From Planctomycetaceae bacterium (lineage in GTDB: Bacteria; Planctomycetota; Planctomycetia; Planctomycetales; Planctomycetaceae), in NCBI GenBank assembly GCA_003445035.1, contig DLVV01000138.1, forward strand, positions 1 to 16,323: a DNA stretch of 16,323 nt, given 5' to 3'. A program made the translations under genes and the position numbers. Position 1 is the stretch's first letter. Each line of letters begins with the position of its first letter. This document shows, piece after piece, positions 1-16,323 of the stretch. The notes under the pieces are model-generated. The model searched no databases. It was not told the origin of the DNA and saw only the letters and a list, made by a program, of their open reading frames with translations.

Positions 1-755
1 CGCTTGTCGGTCGATTGAGTGAGTATCCACTCGTAGAGCTTGGGGTTGCCGTAGGTCGCGTCCCAGCAATTGTGACCGAGCTGTGGATAGAGCGTGAACC
101 GGATCGGGGCACCGCGATCCCTGAGGTCTGCGACAGTTTTCTGCAACTCCTCGACCAGGCTGGATCGGTCCTTGCCCCCGACGGTCGCCCATGTCGGCAA
201 CTGCAGAAATTGCTTGGAATCGATCTTGGCAGTGCCACAGATCGGCACGATCGCCGCGAACCGACCGGGGGCGGCGTTGGCCACTGCCCAGGTTCCGGCG
301 CCTCCCATGCTCAGGCCTGTCACCGAGGTGCGTTTCTTGTCGATGTTGTAGGTGGCCTGGAGGTGGTCAATCAGTTCGAGCAGGGCAGCGGCGTGGAATC
401 GTTCTCCGGGACGGACCTGGGGCGAAACGGTGACGAAGGGGAAATCGGGCCGCTTGGCGACGAGCTTGGGAGGCCCATGCTTCTTGACCAGTTCGAGGTC
501 GTTTCCCCGTTCCCCGGATCCGTGCAAAAACAGCAACAACGGCGAAGGGCGGCCCTTGGCCTTGTAGGTCCTGGGCAGGAAAACCAGGTATTGGCATGAG
601 TGCGATGGGGTCTTTTGACTCTGGAACTTCTGTCCGACCTGTTTTCCGGGCGAGGGGGTCGCTGCGGTAGCAGACGAGTTCACCAGCAAAAAGGAAACAA
701 TGAACAATCTCAGTCCCGCCGTGATATGAGCCACGTGGTGTCGCCGTGTTCTCAT
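1..755 (-). CDS. Secreted alpha/beta-hydrolase, predicted serine esterase/peptidase (3' end outside window)
   Basis: About 251 codons are visible, running right to left and off the left edge without a stop codon. The N-terminus looks like a signal peptide: MRTRRHH, then a hydrophobic stretch (about residues 12-30, ITAGLRLFIVSFLLV) ending near SSATAA. The mature part has the alpha/beta-hydrolase features: an oxyanion-type HGSGERG loop, the nucleophile elbow GLSMGG, an acid-residue candidate in GGKD, and a His candidate in LGHNCWD, so the full Ser-Asp-His triad appears present. This resembles the predicted peptidase/phospholipase-carboxylesterase group (COG4099-like, dienelactone hydrolase fold). 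The substrate cannot be told; a secreted esterase acting on plant or algal polymers would be typical but is inference. ATG at 755 is chosen because GGAG lies 7 bases upstream (plus-strand 763-766) and a signal peptide follows. It is divergent from the sigma factor gene, 154 bases away. Confidence 0.85.
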   Translation of the reverse strand, partial: MRTRRHHVAHITAGLRLFIVSFLLVNSSATAATPSPGKQVGQKFQSQKTPSHSCQYLVFLPRTYKAKGRPSPLLLFLHGSGERGNDLELVKKHGPPKLVAKRPDFPFVTVSPQVRPGERFHAAALLELIDHLQATYNIDKKRTSVTGLSMGGAGTWAVANAAPGRFAAIVPICGTAKIDSKQFLQLPTWATVGGKDRSSLVEELQKTVADLRDRGAPIRFTLYPQLGHNCWDATYGNPKLYEWILTQSTDK

Positions 756-909
756 GCCGAATCTCCGTTCGAAAATGCTCGTGTTGCCTCCATTCAACGA
801 CTCCCCATTCCGGAATGCAACGTCTCGGAGGTGTCGACGTGGTGGCGGCTCGCGGGAATGCTGGGATAGACTGAAAACGTCAACCTGCGGTTCTCTGTCG
901 CCACGCAAA

Positions 910-1536
910 ATGCCCGACTCCGACATCAACACATCGGTTCTCATCGGCCTGCTCGATCGGGCGCGAGATGGCGATGACCAGGCTCGAGACGAGTTGTTCG
1001 AGCGGTGCCGACATTACGTCGCGTTGCTGGCTCGGGTGCATATCGAAAGTTGGTTGCAGGCCAAGGTCGACCCATCGGATCTCGTTCAGCAGACATTGCT
1101 GGAAGCCTACCGGGGCCTGGACGGGTTCCAGGGCCAGACTGAGGGCGAATGGTTGGCGTGGCTCAAGCAAATTCTCAAGCACAACGCCACCGATTACATT
1201 CGTTCATACAAGGGGACCGCCAAGCGGCGGATCCAGCGGGAGGTGCCGATGGAGGCCCCTCGGCATGGTTCGAGCCTGTTTCGAATCGATCCATCTGATC
1301 CGGGCGATACGCCCAGCCAGTTGGTCATGCAACACGAGAACGAAATCCAGTTGGCCGAGGCGGTCAGTCGGCTTGACGAAGATCACCAGCAGGTGATCCT
1401 GTTGCGGAATGTTCAGCGAATGAGTTTCAACGAGGTGGCCGAGCGGATGGGGCGGTCCCGTCCAGCTGTCCAGATGCTTTGGCTACGAGCTCTGAAAAAA
1501 TTGAAAGATCTGCTTCACGATGTCGAGGGACCCTGA
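910..1536 (+). CDS. ECF-type RNA polymerase sigma factor, planctomycete kinase-associated type
   Basis: A 208-residue sigma-70 family factor of the extracytoplasmic function type, directing RNA polymerase to a dedicated promoter set. Sigma region 2 spans about residues 25-100, with the region 2.2 core VDPSDLVQQTLLEAY (53-67). Region 4 spans about 145-203, with the helix-turn-helix MSFNEVAERMGRSRPAVQML (171-190). There is no anti-sigma gene next to it; instead the stop overlaps the start of a Ser/Thr kinase gene by 17 bases, implying translational coupling and joint function. In most ECF factors region 2.2 carries an acidic DAED-like motif; here it reads DPSD, with Ser56 replacing the Glu. ATG 910 is chosen because the protein then begins like its relatives. 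The frame is open further upstream to an ATG at 754, but that 52-residue extension is Arg/Ser-rich with no recognisable domain. No Shine-Dalgarno sequence is seen. Confidence 0.9.
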   Translation: MPDSDINTSVLIGLLDRARDGDDQARDELFERCRHYVALLARVHIESWLQAKVDPSDLVQQTLLEAYRGLDGFQGQTEGEWLAWLKQILKHNATDYIRSYKGTAKRRIQREVPMEAPRHGSSLFRIDPSDPGDTPSQLVMQHENEIQLAEAVSRLDEDHQQVILLRNVQRMSFNEVAERMGRSRPAVQMLWLRALKKLKDLLHDVEGP

Positions 1537-3313
1537 GGGGATCGGTCCGGAGTTGTCCGGCGAGTTGCCACTCGATCCGGACGACAGCAATCTGGTCGAG
1601 GCTCTGGATCAGCTGGTTGATGCGCTGCAGGCCGAAGACGGCCAGGCTCGTACCGTTTTGCTGACGGCTCGGCCCGAGTTGGCCGAATACGCCGAGTGCC
1701 TGGTCCGTTTGGATGCCTTGTTGCCGGCGTCGGCTGTGGCCGGTGCGGAGCATTCGGATCCGCTCCACACGGGGCCCACCGGTCCCTCTCAGAACGACGG
1801 CGATCGGGTGGGCACCCGGTTCGGCCGCTACGAGTTGGTCGAACGGATTGGTCACGGCGCCATGGGTGTCGTCTACCTGGCTCGCCAGACCGATCTGGAC
1901 CGGACCGTGGCACTGAAATTGATCACTCCCGGCCGTGTGGGCGGTGAGGCGGACGTGGAGAGGTTTTACAGCGAGGCCCGTGCGGCGGCTCGGCTCAGGC
2001 ATCCGGGCATCGTCGGAGTGCTGGAGGTTGGGGAGGTTGACGGCCAGCACTTCATCGCTATGGATTACGTCTCCGGAGGCGATCTCTCCGAATTTGTCAG
2101 AAGCCAAACACCCGGCAGCGAAGGGGAGAGCTCACACGCCGACGACTCGGTGTTGTTGCTGACTTCGCCGACGGGCCTGTGGCGAAAGCCCATTTCCGGT
2201 ACGGCTGTCGAACCGGATACCGCTGCCGGCTGGATCGTGGATATTTCGAGGGCGGTGGATTATCTGCACAATCACGACGTCATTCACCGTGACCTGAAAC
2301 TGGGCAACATCCTGCTGGATGAAGACCAGCGACCATTGGTGACTGATTTTGGATTGGCATTGGTCTACGGTGACGAGGCGACCAAGACAAATGCCGGCGC
2401 GATCGTGGGAACGCCAGCCTACATGGCCCCGGAACAGGCCACCGGCGATGTCGAGGCGATTTCTCCACGGAGCGATATTTTCAGCCTCGGCGTGATGCTC
2501 TATGAACTGCTGACCGGCCGCCCGCCGTTCCTGGTTGATAATCCTCTCGATACCCTGGTCCGTGTGATCGAGGTCGATCCCGAGCCACCCACCGCCATCC
2601 AGCCATGGTTGTCACGTGAACTGGAACATATCTGTCTGAAGTGTCTCGAGAAGGATCCCGGCAGCCGCTATCACTCGGCCAGAGAACTGGCCGACGATCT
2701 GGAGCGGTATCTGAGGCGTGAGAACGTTCGGGCCCGACCGGCCGGAGTGGTTCACCGGGTGCGAAGATGGGGGCGTCGTCAGCCGGTGCTGATGGCCCAC
2801 ATGGTCGCCCTGGGCCTGGTGGCCCTCATCAATCAACTGGGTTTTCTCTTTGGTGGCGATGCCGAGCATCCGGAGGTTCACCAGCGGGTGATGGCGATTC
2901 TGGTCGTCTGGATGGTCGTCTCGATTGCCTGCCAGGGACTGATGAAACGTCCGCGGTGGCAGGCGGCCGTCCGATTTTTCTGGTGCGCCACCGACGCGGC
3001 ACTGCTGACGTCCGTACTGGCACAAAGTGCGGCTGCCCCCGGTCCGTTGCTGGTCGGGTATGCGCTGCTGATCGCAGCTTCGGGGTTGTTCTTCCGTGTC
3101 CGACTGGTGTGGTTCATGACCCTGTCCTGTGTTCTCGGCTACGCCGTCCTGCTGGGGGTCCGACAACGGCTGCACGCCGTTGCCCTGGACGAGGATGTGC
3201 CCTGGCAGTATCCGATTCTCTTTGCGGTGGTCCTGGCCGTTCTGGGGATGGTCATCGCCTACCAGGTCTTCCGGGTCAGGGTTCTGAGCCGGTACTACCG
3301 CCGGGGAGGATGA
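1520..3313 (+). CDS. Ser/Thr protein kinase with C-terminal multi-helix membrane domain
   Basis: 597 residues. The N-terminal 100 residues are a helical, acidic leader. The Hanks-type kinase domain covers about 104-398 and has every catalytic element: glycine loop GHGAMG (111-116), ATP-binding Lys133 in ALKL, Glu152, catalytic loop HRDLK (256-260, Asp258) with Asn263, DFG (276-278), and YMAPEQ (301-306). A poorly conserved insertion of about 35 residues (196-232) interrupts the C-lobe before helix E. After a basic stretch (404-421), about six hydrophobic segments follow (near 423-445, 455-473, 485-502, 507-525, 528-548 and 563-582), and the protein ends in a basic tail. It therefore looks like an active kinase held in the inner membrane by a polytopic sensor domain rather than the single helix plus repeat domain common in planctomycetes. 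ATG 1520 lies inside the sigma factor gene. The likely partner is that sigma factor; this is inferred from gene order. Confidence 0.93.
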   Translation: MSRDPEGIGPELSGELPLDPDDSNLVEALDQLVDALQAEDGQARTVLLTARPELAEYAECLVRLDALLPASAVAGAEHSDPLHTGPTGPSQNDGDRVGTRFGRYELVERIGHGAMGVVYLARQTDLDRTVALKLITPGRVGGEADVERFYSEARAAARLRHPGIVGVLEVGEVDGQHFIAMDYVSGGDLSEFVRSQTPGSEGESSHADDSVLLLTSPTGLWRKPISGTAVEPDTAAGWIVDISRAVDYLHNHDVIHRDLKLGNILLDEDQRPLVTDFGLALVYGDEATKTNAGAIVGTPAYMAPEQATGDVEAISPRSDIFSLGVMLYELLTGRPPFLVDNPLDTLVRVIEVDPEPPTAIQPWLSRELEHICLKCLEKDPGSRYHSARELADDLERYLRRENVRARPAGVVHRVRRWGRRQPVLMAHMVALGLVALINQLGFLFGGDAEHPEVHQRVMAILVVWMVVSIACQGLMKRPRWQAAVRFFWCATDAALLTSVLAQSAAAPGPLLVGYALLIAASGLFFRVRLVWFMTLSCVLGYAVLLGVRQRLHAVALDEDVPWQYPILFAVVLAVLGMVIAYQVFRVRVLSRYYRRGG

Positions 3314-7360: not shown

Positions 7361-8161
7361 TCACTCGCTGCGAAAGGTCGAGTGACAGTCGGCGCAGGCC
7401 TTGGCGGACTGGAGATACAGCGGCTTGATTTTAGTCTTGTCGCCGGCCCGAAAAGCCCTCGCGGTGGCGGCGGCGTTCGTCTGGAAATTCGACGAGAAGT
7501 TCTGCCAGGCGGGCAACTGGGACTTTTGTTTGACCTCGTGAGTGTCGGAGAGGATGACCAGTCCCAGCAGGCTCATTGTCGCGGCATTGCGTGCGGCGAG
7601 ATTGGGGTCACGCGTTTGTCGGACTGCCCGCCTCAGTCGGCTGTTACGAGAGTTGAGTTCCTCCATGACGTGATGGAGCGAAATCAGTCCGGTCCAAGGC
7701 CGCTTGGCCGACCCGACCGGTTGGGCCTGTCCGAGAACCGCTTGTGTGAGTCTGGGAACTGTCGCGAGCGCCTCGCCGTGTGTTTTGCTCGCGGAAAGCT
7801 TCAGGGCGGTATCTCGCAACGTCGGTCCGTGGATCGGCAGCCGGTCCGCTTTTTCCGCGGTGGTCAGTTTGCTGTCGTGCGAGGCCAGTGCCTGCCCGAT
7901 CACGGCCAGCATGCCGGCGGCTCGCGGCAGTTCATGCTTGGCCGAGTCTGCGTAGGACTTTCTGGTGTCCAGGTACTGCTTGACGAGAGACAGTTGGAGA
8001 ACGGCTTCGTTCTGGAGGTCGGAGATTGAGATGATCTCGGAAAGCTTCTGGGGTCGGCGGGCGGGGGGCTTGGTTGATGTCATGCCCAGGCAGGCGACAG
8101 TCCCAAACAGCACGGTGAGCACTATCGGGGTGGTTGAAGTGAGGCGGAGCAGGGGGGACAT
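7361..8161 (-). CDS. Cytochrome c'-like (class II) protein with one C-terminal haem site
   Basis: 266 residues. An N-terminal hydrophobic segment (about 11-27, ending TVACLGM) indicates export; TVAC is an imperfect lipobox, so it may be a lipoprotein or be cut by signal peptidase I. The rest is predicted mostly helical. A single covalent haem motif CADCH (256-260) lies six residues from the C-terminus, the position expected in class II cytochromes such as cytochrome c', where the motif sits in the last helix of a four-helix bundle. The protein is about twice the usual length. Residues 45-145 and 157-262 look weakly alike, but only the second half has CxxCH. The role is electron transfer or gas binding in the periplasm; the partner is unknown. 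ATG 8161 has GGAG 7 bases upstream (plus-strand 8169-8172). It lies 69 bases downstream of the membrane glycosyltransferase gene on the same strand. Confidence 0.8.
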   Translation of the reverse strand: MSPLLRLTSTTPIVLTVLFGTVACLGMTSTKPPARRPQKLSEIISISDLQNEAVLQLSLVKQYLDTRKSYADSAKHELPRAAGMLAVIGQALASHDSKLTTAEKADRLPIHGPTLRDTALKLSASKTHGEALATVPRLTQAVLGQAQPVGSAKRPWTGLISLHHVMEELNSRNSRLRRAVRQTRDPNLAARNAATMSLLGLVILSDTHEVKQKSQLPAWQNFSSNFQTNAAATARAFRAGDKTKIKPLYLQSAKACADCHSTFRSE

Positions 8162-13182: not shown

Positions 13183-13341
13183 ACTACGGGTTTGGACCGT
13201 CCTGCGGGGCGGGCAAAGTGCTAAGAAAACGACCGGAGAGGCTGCACGGGCCGGATTCTTGTCGCGGGTTTTGGACCCGGGACATCCGGCTGGCCAGTGG
13301 TGACCGGTCGAGCGACGACGGGGTTCAACGGATGCTGTCAA

Positions 13342-13347
13342 AGGTGA
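13342..13347 (+). promoter_or_regulatory. Ribosome binding site deciding the yajC start
   Basis: AGGTGA with a 5-base spacer to ATG 13353. It is one of the clearest Shine-Dalgarno matches in the window and favours 13353 over the in-frame ATG at 13332, which has no such motif. Confidence 0.6.
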
Positions 13348-13352
13348 AAGGG

Positions 13353-13910
13353 ATGCGGTCGTACGGCGTCGTGGCGACCTGTGTTGCCGCGGTTTTCGTG
13401 TTGGCGTTCGTCCCGGTGGTGCTCGCACAGGACGAGACACCCGCGGAAGGTCCTGCGACGGATGCCAGTGCAGCGGCGGCCGGAGAGTCGCCCGCGTCAA
13501 GCGACGAGGCTGGTGCGGGTGACACGTCAACTGCGGAGACGGATTCCGCCAGTCCGGATCCAGCGGCCAATCCCGATGCCCCGGCAGCAAATCAGGCGGA
13601 ACCACCGTCGATGACGGACATGCTGGTCCCGATCATCGGGATGGGGCTGATTTTCTACTTCATTGTGCTGGCTCCACAGAAGAAGGCCCGCAAGAAACAG
13701 CAGGCGGTGGTGGAGTCACTTCAGAAACACGATCGGGTGGTTTCCATTGGCGGAATCGTCGGTACGATCGTCTCGTTTGACACGTCCAGTGACGAGGTGA
13801 TTCTGGAAGTGGCCCCCGAGACGCATATCAGGATGCTGCGTCGGAGCATCCAGGGGCCTAAGGCCCTGGGTTCTGACGAGGATGGTGCGGGAGACAAGGT
13901 CGGGAAGTAA
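13353..13910 (+). CDS. yajC: Preprotein translocase accessory subunit YajC, with N-terminal extension
   Basis: 185 residues from this start. The C-terminal part is a normal YajC. The membrane helix (about 88-107, MTDMLVPIIGMGLIFYFIVL) runs into APQKKARKKQQAVVESLQKHDRVVSIGGIVGTI (107-139), and the beta-rich cytoplasmic domain follows to about 165. YajC associates with SecD and SecF at the inner membrane in protein export. In front of this core lies an unusual extension: a signal-peptide-like segment (1-25, cleavage after VLA) and about 60 residues very rich in Ala, Ser, Asp, Glu and Pro (27-87). Canonical YajC is about 110 residues without these. The first ATG in this frame after tgt is 13218 and a second is 13332; 13353 is preferred for its Shine-Dalgarno match. 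It lies 170 bases after tgt and 45 before the next gene. Confidence 0.9.
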   Translation: MRSYGVVATCVAAVFVLAFVPVVLAQDETPAEGPATDASAAAAGESPASSDEAGAGDTSTAETDSASPDPAANPDAPAANQAEPPSMTDMLVPIIGMGLIFYFIVLAPQKKARKKQQAVVESLQKHDRVVSIGGIVGTIVSFDTSSDEVILEVAPETHIRMLRRSIQGPKALGSDEDGAGDKVGK

Positions 13911-13955: not shown

Positions 13956-14744
13956 ATGGATCAACTTGGAATTCCCCTGATTCTGGCCAAGATCCCCGTT
14001 TGGGGCGCCGGTGTGTGTTTCGTTCTGACCGTGGTTGGCGGCTACGTTGCGTCGCGGTGGTGCGAAAAGCAGGAGGCATTTGCCGAAAGTCATGTGACGA
14101 TGGGCGTGCTGGCGTTTGCGGGCCTGGTCGCACTGGGTTCTATGGTCCCCGGCCTGTTCTTCGACCTGGATACCGGCGGCCGGTTTTTGCTGGGGCTGGG
14201 TCTGGGGGTGTTTGGCCTGGGGGGATGGCTGGGGTCCCGCGACATGCTCAAGGGGCAACTGGTGGCGGCGATGTGCCTGCTTTACGTGGCCGTTTCGGTG
14301 GCGGTATTCGTCTGGCAGCCGCAGTGGTACTTCGGCAGTGGTACCGGGACGAGGGCTGTCCTGCTGATTGCTGCGACGTTCGTCGTTCCGTTGAGCCTCG
14401 GACACTTGTTGGCGATGGCAATGAAGATGGAAGACTTCTCGTGGCGGATCGGCGTCGTGCTGACGACGGTCACGCTAGCCTTGTGGCCGATGGCCAAGGG
14501 CGTGGTTGTGCAGGCCGCCGACAAGTGGATCCACGATGCGGCGGTCCAAAAATGGCAGGCGGGCAATGACAGTTACAAGGTCACAGACGGGGTCGTGAAG
14601 ACCCTGGGGGAAAAACTGCCCAGGCTGACCGTCCATTATTCCGAAGGCGGCAAGATGCCTGATGCCAAGCCGGGGGCGTCGGCGGTGATGCGGTCTGGCG
14701 GCGATGCGGCGAACAAAAAGTCGGATGAACCGGATGAAAAGTGA
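13956..14744 (+). CDS. Unrecognised six-helix membrane protein between yajC and secD
   Basis: I do not recognise this 262-residue protein. It has about six hydrophobic segments (near 13-33, 49-69, 74-94, 101-120, 132-154 and 162-183). The third is Gly/Leu-rich (FLLGLGLGVFGLGGWLG, 77-93). A hydrophilic tail of about 80 residues follows, containing a possible amphipathic helix (186-202), KTLGEKLPRLTVHY and a charged end rich in Lys, Asp and Glu. There is no signal peptide, lipobox, haem motif or ATPase motif. It sits 45 bases after yajC and 55 before secD on the same strand, so it is very likely co-transcribed with the Sec accessory genes and could be part of that complex or merely a membrane passenger. 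No convincing Shine-Dalgarno sequence: AAGGA at 13939-13943 is 12 bases away. ATG 13956 is the first in frame after yajC. Confidence 0.75.
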   Translation: MDQLGIPLILAKIPVWGAGVCFVLTVVGGYVASRWCEKQEAFAESHVTMGVLAFAGLVALGSMVPGLFFDLDTGGRFLLGLGLGVFGLGGWLGSRDMLKGQLVAAMCLLYVAVSVAVFVWQPQWYFGSGTGTRAVLLIAATFVVPLSLGHLLAMAMKMEDFSWRIGVVLTTVTLALWPMAKGVVVQAADKWIHDAAVQKWQAGNDSYKVTDGVVKTLGEKLPRLTVHYSEGGKMPDAKPGASAVMRSGGDAANKKSDEPDEK

Positions 14745-14799: not shown

Positions 14800-16323
14800 A
14801 TGGACCGTTGGTGGGCGTTGGCCTGTGTTCCGGCTCTGTGGCTGGTACTGGCCGTGGCCGGGTGCAGTGACACCGATCCGATGATCAAGCTCCGCCGGGC
14901 CGGAGCGGTGATTGAGCATGATGACGAACGGGTGAAGGTCGAGCGGGTGGTGTTGTCTCAATCGGCGACCCCCGATCAGCTGGACGAACAGTTGAAAGAC
15001 CTGGCCCGTGTGCCGCGCGTCCTGATGCTGGACCTTTCGGGGACCCAAGTCCAGGACGAGCAGGTCAAGCAACTTGCCGCACTCGATGAACTCCAGACGC
15101 TGGATCTTTCGGATACCGCCGTCACCGACGAAGGACTCAAGGTCCTGGCCAGCCTGACCAGCCTCCGCAAGCTGACACTCTCCAACACCCGGGTCACCGA
15201 CGGTGGTCTTTCCGAGCACATTCCCGAATTCCCTGCGCTGGAAACGCTGGAAATTTCTCGATTGAAGGAGCCCCAGCGAGAATCCGGGGTGGTCGAGGGG
15301 GGTGGAGTTCTCGAGAAGTTTTTCTCCGGAATCAAGCTGGGCATCGACCTGGCTGGTGGAGCGAACCTGATCCTGGAGGTGGATCAAGGGAAACTGGACG
15401 AGCAAGAAAAGAAACTGACGGCCGACGTGATGTCGCAAATGGCCACCTCGATCAACAAACGGGCCAATCCCGGTGGCAATAAGGAGCTGACCGTACGCCC
15501 ATTGGGGACGAATCGGATTGAGGTGATCATTCCCAAGGCGGACCCGCAGGTTGTTGAACAGACGAAGCGGATGATGACCCGACTGGGGAGTCTCGAGTTG
15601 GCGATCCTGGCCAACAGCCAGGATATGAAATTTCAGGACCTGGTCAGGCGAGCCCAGGAGTTGCCCGACGACAAGACACGGGTCATCACCGAAGTCGCCC
15701 AGCAGGACGGTTCCACACGCTCACGAGTGGATGGGGCATGGTTGCCCATTTCCGAGGACGGTCGGGATGTTCAGAATTCTACGAACCGGTTGGTGTTCAA
15801 GAAGCGGCCCAACCTGCAGGGGCAACCTGTCGATCACGTGCTCGTGTCCTACGAGGACGAAAACCTGCGGGTGACGGGTGAACATCTCAACAACGTCTAT
15901 CAGACCAACGACGAAAACGGTCGATTGGCCGTAGGCTTCCGTTTGAATTACGGGGGCGCCAACCGGTTTTCGGATCTGACCGGCCGCAACGAGCCCGACA
16001 GGGCCGCGGGATTTTATCGACACCTTGCGATCATTCTCGACGGCGAGGTGTTCTCGGCACCGACGCTCAACGAACGCATCAGTGACAGCGGACAGATCTC
16101 GGGTGATTTCACCCATGAGGAGATCAACGAACTGATCGGCGTGCTCAAGGCCGGGGCACTCGAAGTCCCTCTAAAGAAGGAGCCGGTCAGCGAACTGACG
16201 ATTTCTCCCACCCTGGGCAGCGATGTGCAGAAGAAGGGCGTGGCGGCCATCGGGATCGCATCGCTTGCGGTTGTCATCTTCATGATCGGTTATTACCGAT
16301 TCTCGGGCATCGTGGCCGTGGTT
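14800..16323 (+). CDS. secD: SecD-family protein translocase subunit with inserted leucine-rich-repeat domain (3' end outside window)
   Basis: 508 codons are visible, with no stop before the right edge. From residue 177 the protein is SecD: GIKLGIDLAGGANLILEVD (177-195) matches the start of the P1 periplasmic domain. Later come LAIILDGEVFSAPTLNERI (409-427), the ALEVPLKKEPVSELTISPTLG segment (454-474) that precedes helix 2, and the start of helix 2 (about 480-500). SecD and SecF use the proton gradient to finish protein export. Upstream is unusual. Residues 5-21 form a hydrophobic segment ending VAGC, a lipobox-like sequence with Cys22. Then come about 50 hydrophilic residues and a leucine-rich-repeat domain (about 72-153) before P1. 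Normally P1 follows the first membrane helix directly. ATG 14800 is chosen for its Shine-Dalgarno match; ATG 14773 would add NRR and a more basic start. SecF, or a fused SecF part, would lie beyond the edge. Confidence 0.88.
   Translation, partial: MDRWWALACVPALWLVLAVAGCSDTDPMIKLRRAGAVIEHDDERVKVERVVLSQSATPDQLDEQLKDLARVPRVLMLDLSGTQVQDEQVKQLAALDELQTLDLSDTAVTDEGLKVLASLTSLRKLTLSNTRVTDGGLSEHIPEFPALETLEISRLKEPQRESGVVEGGGVLEKFFSGIKLGIDLAGGANLILEVDQGKLDEQEKKLTADVMSQMATSINKRANPGGNKELTVRPLGTNRIEVIIPKADPQVVEQTKRMMTRLGSLELAILANSQDMKFQDLVRRAQELPDDKTRVITEVAQQDGSTRSRVDGAWLPISEDGRDVQNSTNRLVFKKRPNLQGQPVDHVLVSYEDENLRVTGEHLNNVYQTNDENGRLAVGFRLNYGGANRFSDLTGRNEPDRAAGFYRHLAIILDGEVFSAPTLNERISDSGQISGDFTHEEINELIGVLKAGALEVPLKKEPVSELTISPTLGSDVQKKGVAAIGIASLAVVIFMIGYYRFSGIVAVV
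15013..15258 (+). repeat. Leucine-rich repeats within secD
   Basis: Three full repeats of about 24 residues and the start of a fourth, each following LxLSxTxVxDxxLxxLxxLxxLxx. The repeats begin at LDLSGTQVQD, LDLSDTAVTD and LTLSNTRVTD, and the last unit begins LEIS. This is the TxVTDxGL subtype common in planctomycete exported proteins. Such domains usually bind other proteins; here the domain would face the periplasm in the same compartment as SecD P1. Confidence 0.85.

What the first reader, a model, noticed from the sequence alone, without database searches (positions are those of the whole stretch)
14800..15420. LRR domain inserted in SecD between its first hydrophobic segment and P1
The frame is continuous from a hydrophobic N-terminus through three to four leucine-rich repeats into an unmistakable SecD P1 start (GIDLAGG at residues 181-187). 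In canonical SecD, P1 follows helix 1 at once. A protein-binding repeat domain there could recognise substrates or cell-envelope partners during late export, or replace part of the P1 head's role. I know of no description of it but cannot search.
Basis: partly seen in the sequence, partly recalled or inferred. Interest (0 to 1): 0.75.

Follow-up and report, generated by a model that had tools for sequence, protein, structure and literature searches.

The report
Split SecD carrying lipoprotein LRR domain
In some planctomycete bacteria the protein-export motor SecD appears to have its first membrane helix in a separate neighbouring gene and instead starts as a lipoprotein with a small leucine-rich-repeat (protein-binding type) domain, an arrangement for which I found no description.

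Summary
The reading frame is real: signal segment, four short leucine-rich repeats (LRR), then SecD P1 (GIDLAGG, residues 181-187). It is no assembly error: 8 of 170 held genomes of the same family (6 genera) have it, and so do database proteins. None was seen outside the family in class and phylum samples.

The hydrophobic segment is a lipoprotein signal peptide (lipobox VAGC; Gly-Cys invariant in 10 of 10 aligned fusions), not SecD helix 1. Helix 1 lies in a separate gene just upstream (13956-14744), homologous to the N-terminus of intact relatives (profile E 3e-11; reversed control 1.7% probability). Among 150 listed matches in 170 genomes, standalone copies occur only in the 8 LRR-SecD genomes. 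So SecD is split between TM1 and P1, with an LRR lipoprotein fused to P1. A predicted full-length relative shows a confident LRR on a flexible linker and a SecDF fold without TM1.

Lipidation, in-trans TM1 and the LRR's job are inferred. My searches of an open library found no paper on it. New variant of a known kind.

The parts
13218..13910 (+). yajC, next to the split secD; long N-terminal Ala/Pro/acidic region
   Evidence: PF02699 77.4 bits over cut-off; hydropathy
13956..14744 (+). separate membrane protein carrying SecD's detached N-terminal helices ('SecD-N'), 262 aa
   Evidence: profile-profile match to the N-terminus of 30 intact SecDs, prob 97.2%, E 3e-11; reversed control 1.7%; 18 database hits, one of them the window's own, none with a precomputed Pfam domain
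14340..14510 (+). helix pair homologous to TM0-TM1 of intact family SecDs (residues 129-185)
   Evidence: hhalign columns
14511..14648 (+). tail behind TM1; homologous to the short SecD-N tails, four of which resemble the C-terminal cap of planctomycete LRR proteins (hardly so in the window itself)
14800..14862 (+). lipoprotein signal peptide of the LRR-SecD protein (residues 1-21)
   Evidence: hydropathy peak residues 5-23; lipobox VAGC; alignment A1
14863..14865 (+). lipobox cysteine, Cys22
   Evidence: invariant in 10 of 10 aligned fusions
14866..15018 (+). N-cap region of the LRR domain (residues 23-73)
   Evidence: alignments; a standalone LRR lipoprotein with a similar N-terminus is in G011
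15019..15261 (+). four leucine-rich repeats (residues 74-154)
   Evidence: Pfam LRR_6 and LRR_4 over cut-off; LRR predicted with high confidence in relative G012
15262..15339 (+). variable linker between LRR and P1
   Evidence: lowest conservation in the window clade; pLDDT under 50 at the matching place in G012, residues 156-177
15340..16230 (+). SecD P1 domain, from GIDLAGG (15340-15360) on; P1 head 15862-16167
   Evidence: PF07549 and PF22599 over cut-off; coordinates
16237..16293 (+). SecD TM2; the gene runs off the contig at 16323 and seems to go on in contig C428
   Evidence: hydropathy; start of PF02355, partial and below its cut-off in the window (14.7 of 20.5 bits); contig overlap

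Best explanation
This is a split, lipoprotein-type SecD. Gene 1 (13956-14744) makes a membrane protein that carries the detached TM0-TM1 helices. Gene 2 (from 14800) makes the rest of SecDF, starting with a type II signal peptide, a lipobox Cys, a four-repeat LRR, a flexible linker and then the normal P1, TM2-6 and SecF. Proposed working: signal peptidase II cleaves before Cys22, the N-terminus is lipid-anchored in the inner membrane where TM1 would have been, TM1 is supplied in trans by the gene 1 protein, and the SecDF body works by the usual proton-driven P1 movement. The LRR is a tethered periplasmic protein-binding arm whose partner is most likely the gene 1 protein or another translocon or envelope protein. 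Shown by sequence: the fusion, the lipobox, the detached TM0-TM1 gene, its occurrence with the fusion, and the complete SecDF remainder in relatives. Inferred: cleavage, lipidation, in-trans assembly (about 0.7) and the LRR's partner (about 0.4).
Against: No biochemical data. The lipobox of some relatives is imperfect (Thr, Phe or Ser at -3 in G011, G012, G014), so cleavage is not certain there. The window TM protein model is poor (pLDDT 51), and no complex could be predicted. Ten of the 160 module matches are not listed; four of these genomes were seen intact, six (G060, G100, G103, G112, G116, G189) were not judged. SecD-body trees do not group the fusions (5 changes; with six fusion rows 0 of 200 bootstrap trees show one clade), although one clade is not rejected (AU p 0.225, 0.256). 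Over all 15 fusions the LRR concave face is only slightly more conserved than the convex face (0.61 against 0.54).
Confidence: 0.65

Rival explanations
1. The signal segment is not cleaved and serves as a replacement TM1 in the same chain; the upstream TM protein has taken on another job.
For: One hydrophobic helix of suitable length in the right topology; imperfect lipobox at -3 in three relatives.
Against: Gly-Cys invariant in 10 of 10; the upstream protein keeps the TM0-TM1 homology and is present in all 8 fusion genomes; its dN/dS is 0.20 (one pair).
Confidence: 0.2
2. The LRR is a passenger: a lipoprotein gene became fused by chance, and only its signal peptide matters, as a new way to place P1 outside. 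(This overlaps with the best explanation; it denies only the LRR's role.)
For: The LRR sequence diverges among lineages; the standalone LRR control cannot separate it from ordinary LRR conservation; no partner known.
Against: Purifying selection on the LRR, dN/dS 0.18 (one pair); nearly fixed length across lineages; kept in 6 genera.
Confidence: 0.2
3. Separate LRR gene joined to secD by a sequencing or assembly error.
For: The window contig ends inside the gene; one database copy seems broken into two proteins on one contig (P0001 and P0006; P0006 not fetched).
Against: Fused frames without a stop in 8 genomes from 6 genera, 1074-1244 aa long in G001, G011, G012, G014, G016 and G187, and in database proteins such as P0005 (741 aa).
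Confidence: 0.01
4. The upstream TM protein only shares ancestry with SecD's N-terminus and no longer joins SecDF; SecD works without TM1.
For: In the window clade it has gained about four extra helices and only 57 columns match; the reported water channel of SecDF comprises TM4, 5, 6 and 10, not TM1 (PMC9508474 passage).
Against: Co-occurrence and gene order in 8 of 8 fusion genomes; conserved helix-pair sequence.
Confidence: 0.15

Closest known systems
Canonical SecD/SecDF (T. thermophilus 3aqp, D. radiodurans 5xan, E. coli 5mg3)
   Same: P1, TM2-6 and SecF half in the relative G012; Sec_GG motif and P1 head in the window; yajC neighbour
   Different: TM1 is not in the chain; type II signal peptide, lipobox Cys, LRR and flexible linker precede P1
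Planctomycetaceae SecDF with fused TM0-TM1 (Gimesia type)
   Same: P1 onward (Gimesia maris P0008: 48% identity over 65% of the query); tgt-yajC-secD order in G091; the same TM0-TM1 module, there fused
   Different: one continuous gene, no LRR, no lipobox
Standalone planctomycete LRR lipoproteins (e.g. G011:C37, 303 aa)
   Same: lipobox, N-cap, repeat type
   Different: not fused to SecD, varying repeat number, a C-terminal cap in some (21 caps); each held-out fused LRR scores above the standalone sequences given

Membership tests
SecD (TIGR01129 / Pfam Sec_GG, SecDF_P1_head) | GG motif at the start of P1 | tested here: met
   PF07549 22.5 bits over 20.3; GIDLAGG 181-187
SecD (TIGR01129 / Pfam Sec_GG, SecDF_P1_head) | P1 head | tested here: met
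   PF22599 81.3 bits over 27
SecD (TIGR01129 / Pfam Sec_GG, SecDF_P1_head) | full-length model score | tested here: inconclusive
   the window is partial: 152.8 against cut-off 244.4; complete relative G012 382
SecD (TIGR01129 / Pfam Sec_GG, SecDF_P1_head) | TM1 in the same chain directly before P1 | tested here: not met
   only a lipobox signal peptide precedes the LRR; TM1 is in the upstream gene; the SecDF fold alignment of G012 starts at model residue 163-169. TIGR01129 itself starts at the GG motif, so the family model does not require TM1
SecD (TIGR01129 / Pfam Sec_GG, SecDF_P1_head) | conserved Asp motifs of the proton path in the membrane part | tested here: met
   VDANV and VDANVTT in relatives G001 and G012, aligned with VDGNV and LDVN of 5xan; which Asp is E. 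coli D519 is recalled; this part lies beyond the window end
Bacterial lipoprotein (signal peptidase II substrate) | lipobox at the end of a hydrophobic signal segment | tested here: met
   LAVAGC, Cys22; Gly-Cys in 10 of 10; the consensus pattern is recalled and three relatives deviate at -3
Bacterial lipoprotein (signal peptidase II substrate) | cleavage and lipidation | not testable with these tools
   needs labelling or N-terminal mass spectrometry
Leucine-rich repeat domain | repeat motif over curated cut-off | tested here: met
   LRR_6 29.9/23.4, LRR_4 31.2/27
Leucine-rich repeat domain | strand-turn-helix solenoid | tested here: met
   regular strand-helix units 76-151, pLDDT blocks 89-95, in relative G012, not the window

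The most novel reading that the evidence does not exclude
A split-LRR clasp holds a split SecD together. The LRR lipoprotein gene went in as a permuted piece: the TM1 gene now ends in an LRR C-terminal cap and the SecD body begins with an LRR that, by my reading of the alignment, has no cap of its own, so the cap docks on the last repeat and re-links TM1 to P1 without a covalent bond, making the TM1-P1 joint detachable or regulated.
Probability: 0.17. Interest if true: 0.85.

Novelty: new variant of a known kind. Interest (0 to 1): 0.6.

Why it matters
SecD is a widespread part of the export machinery, and its TM1-P1 connection is part of the RND fold in the solved structures. A natural lineage that cuts exactly there, codes TM1 as another protein and hangs P1 on a lipoprotein with a protein-binding domain would show that TM1 need not be covalently linked. 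It offers a natural tool to ask what TM1 does in P1 movement, and it points to a possible extra partner of the translocon in planctomycetes.

Tried and rejected
Assembly error: rejected. Translation-arrest leader as the upstream gene: the TM gene shows homology to SecD TM0-TM1, and I saw no RAPP-like end in the window's copy by eye; arrest peptides upstream of secDF are described in PMC10987492 (passages only). LRR in the TM gene by Pfam: no match in 7 proteins. LRR C-cap in the TM-gene tail: G014, G012, P0140 and G016 have 0 of 2000 of their own shuffles at or above their score; P0128 1, P0122 2 and P0130 3 of 2000; the window tail 29 of 2000 with another stretch aligned, G187 56, the rest 15 to 994 of 2000 (24 tails in all). 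The first run pooled 9200 shuffles and its cap set of 23 held two wrong-frame rows, dropped. The ends of fused LRRs also score with the cap profile (up to 12.0 bits), so the profile is not specific, and that the fused LRR lacks a cap rests on my reading alone.

Single origin: the LRR profile, leaving each lineage out, ranks every held-out fusion above the standalone sequences (167 given, uncurated, some wrong frames; 110-122 rows scored, fusions included). SecD-body trees scatter the fusions (5 changes), and the Tgt tree does so too (4 changes). AU tests do not reject one clade (p 0.225, 0.256, 0.302; 0.0985 with G024 added). Loss or transfer is left open. Row L062 (G002 fragment) was dropped from the trees and replaced by L133.

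Conserved LRR face: suggestive only (a trio of standalone proteins was not a clean orthologue set). Structure of the window TM protein: pLDDT 51, not used. The pdb_via rows barely test the LRR part of the model (they cover 164-1059). Genome surveys: one search lists only part of its matches, so a few family genomes (e.g. G112, G116, G188) were not judged by it; the draws did not match all eight known fusions (1 and 5), and strict cut-offs could miss diverged ones. One search scored 7995 candidates and lists 120 of 393 hits; two searches were run with the frame from 14812. For alignment A4, 32 of 61 usable SecD loci were given. One search used a wrong frame and was redone.

Full report
What is there. 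The window is a whole contig (C349) of an assembly of 467 contigs. On the + strand it ends with tgt, yajC, a 262-aa membrane protein gene and an LRR-SecD frame that runs off the contig. The SecD frame holds LRR_4, LRR_6, Sec_GG and SecDF_P1_head, each over its Pfam cut-off. The next part of the gene seems to begin at the end of contig C428, which overlaps C349 by 24 bases in frame. The genome has one P1-head match.

Not an artefact. A profile of ten LRR-SecD proteins was run on the 170 held genomes of the same family; 161 have a match. Matches that start in the signal peptide and run through the LRR into P1 occur in G000, G001, G002, G011, G012, G014, G016 and G187 (8 genomes, 6 genera). All other listed matches start at profile position 148 or later, that is, without the LRR (the list is cut, so a few genomes are not judged). 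With an N-terminal profile and strict cut-offs, fusions appeared only in this family: 5 of 397 genomes drawn from the class (two further matches there are standalone LRR proteins) and 1 of 392 drawn from the phylum (the window's own). Database proteins carry it too (P0001-P0005, P0007, P0016). That the family is Planctomycetaceae, and that G002 and G012 are the records RS395 and SP200, is inferred from record titles, contig lengths and positions.

The hydrophobic segment is a lipoprotein signal. It ends in LAVAGC, the Gly-Cys is invariant in 10 of 10 aligned fusions, and hydropathy finds no other segment before TM2. The fused LRR is of the kind of planctomycete LRR lipoproteins: a standalone one with the same N-terminal layout is in G011, and many LRR proteins match the repeat part in the 8 genomes. 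The fused ones score above the standalone sequences given in a leave-one-lineage-out test and keep a nearly fixed length.

SecD is split. In intact family members P1 is preceded by two helices (TM0, TM1) in the same chain: 30 of 30 intact rows match the short TM-gene profile there. In the 8 fusion genomes a separate gene between yajC and LRR-secD carries this pair. Profile comparison: short TM genes against intact N-termini prob 99.5%, E 5e-23, 66 columns; window-type TM genes prob 97.2%, E 3e-11, 57 columns; reversed controls 0.2% and 1.7%; short against long 98.7% over 97 columns, tail included. A genome-wide search for the module matched 160 of 170 genomes; 150 matches are listed. It is standalone (frames 123-281 aa) in exactly the 8 fusion genomes. 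Five other short frames proved to be intact SecDs cut at a contig end. Of the ten genomes with unlisted matches, four were seen intact and six were not judged. The window-type TM gene has about four further helices, with close relatives only in G000, G001, G002 and G011.

Selection and surface. Window against G002: dN/dS LRR 0.18, TM gene 0.20, P1 0.09 (one pair). In the window clade (8 sequences) the commonest residue at concave LRR positions has mean frequency 0.92, at convex and loop positions 0.69, in P1 0.93; over 15 fusions the figures are 0.61, 0.54 and 0.74. In two standalone pairs 36 of 45 concave and 91 of 130 convex positions are identical, against 11 of 12 and 14 of 30 for the SecD LRR (window-G001; concave SecD against standalone, Fisher p 0.67). 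That is too few to prove a special binding face.

Origin. The TM-gene tail resembles the C-terminal cap of LRR proteins in four short-family sequences (0 of 2000 shuffles each) but hardly in the window or G187 (29 and 56 of 2000). This fits insertion of a permuted or tandem LRR gene between TM1 and P1, which would have split the gene at once. The trees scatter the fusions over the family, while tests do not reject one clade. One origin with losses or transfer and repeated origin all remain open.

How it most likely works. SecDF is described as a proton-driven helper whose P1 domain is thought to handle emerging protein; its reported channel comprises TM4, TM5, TM6 and TM10 (PMC9508474 and PMC8669966, passages). 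TM1 is not named in it, so a non-covalent TM1 is mechanically conceivable. A lipid anchor and TM1 place the P1 start on the same side of the membrane. The LRR then sits on a loose tether beside P1 and could hold the TM1 subunit, a translocon partner or an envelope protein. These last steps are inference.

Literature. Ten searches of the held open library ran, and I saw no description of it: SecD/leucine-rich repeat/planctomycet (0 papers), SecDF/split/SecD/Planctomycetes, SecDF/leucine-rich repeat (43, 1, on Listeria virulence genes), SecDF/P1 domain/transmembrane/proton/structure (44, 8 listed; passages of two seen), SecDF/additional domain (45, 4 listed), planctomycet/SecDF (46, 7 listed; passages of PMC4452313, PMC2881027 and PMC10987492 seen), planctomycet/leucine-rich repeat/lipoprotein (68, 5 listed), leucine-rich repeat/C-terminal cap/split/complementation (75, 0), SecD/gene fission (95, 0), SecDF/RND/evolution/domain architecture (96, 3 listed). 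For the other papers I saw the listing only. Most subscription papers are not covered.

Verdict. The more striking fact, not in the finding, is the split of SecD between TM1 and P1.

Noticed in passing
13218-13910: YajC has a signal-like helix and a roughly 65-residue Ala/Pro/acidic stretch before its usual membrane helix; similar in G002, shorter in G001, absent in G012 and G016 by eye.
   Followed up: no
13956-14340: Extra membrane domain of about four helices at the N-terminus of the window-lineage TM gene; weak paralogues at G000:C267, G002:C149 and G011:C47 (39-40% over about 77-94 residues).
   Followed up: partly
L091 (G024): Intact SecD with a long TM1-P1 linker whose first part matches the tail of the split TM genes (profile to position 98); it may be the state before the split, or a re-fused SecD that lost the LRR.
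   Followed up: partly
L044-L100 (intact family SecDs): SecD of this family commonly has an additional helix (TM0) before TM1, weakly shared with two other families of the class (f5, f7).
   Followed up: partly
754-3313: Sigma-70-type factor gene overlapping a Ser/Thr protein kinase gene with a hydrophobic C-terminus by eye.
   Followed up: no
7361-8161 (-): Predicted protein with a C-terminal CADCH motif (cytochrome-like by eye) and no Pfam match at 1e-5.
   Followed up: no
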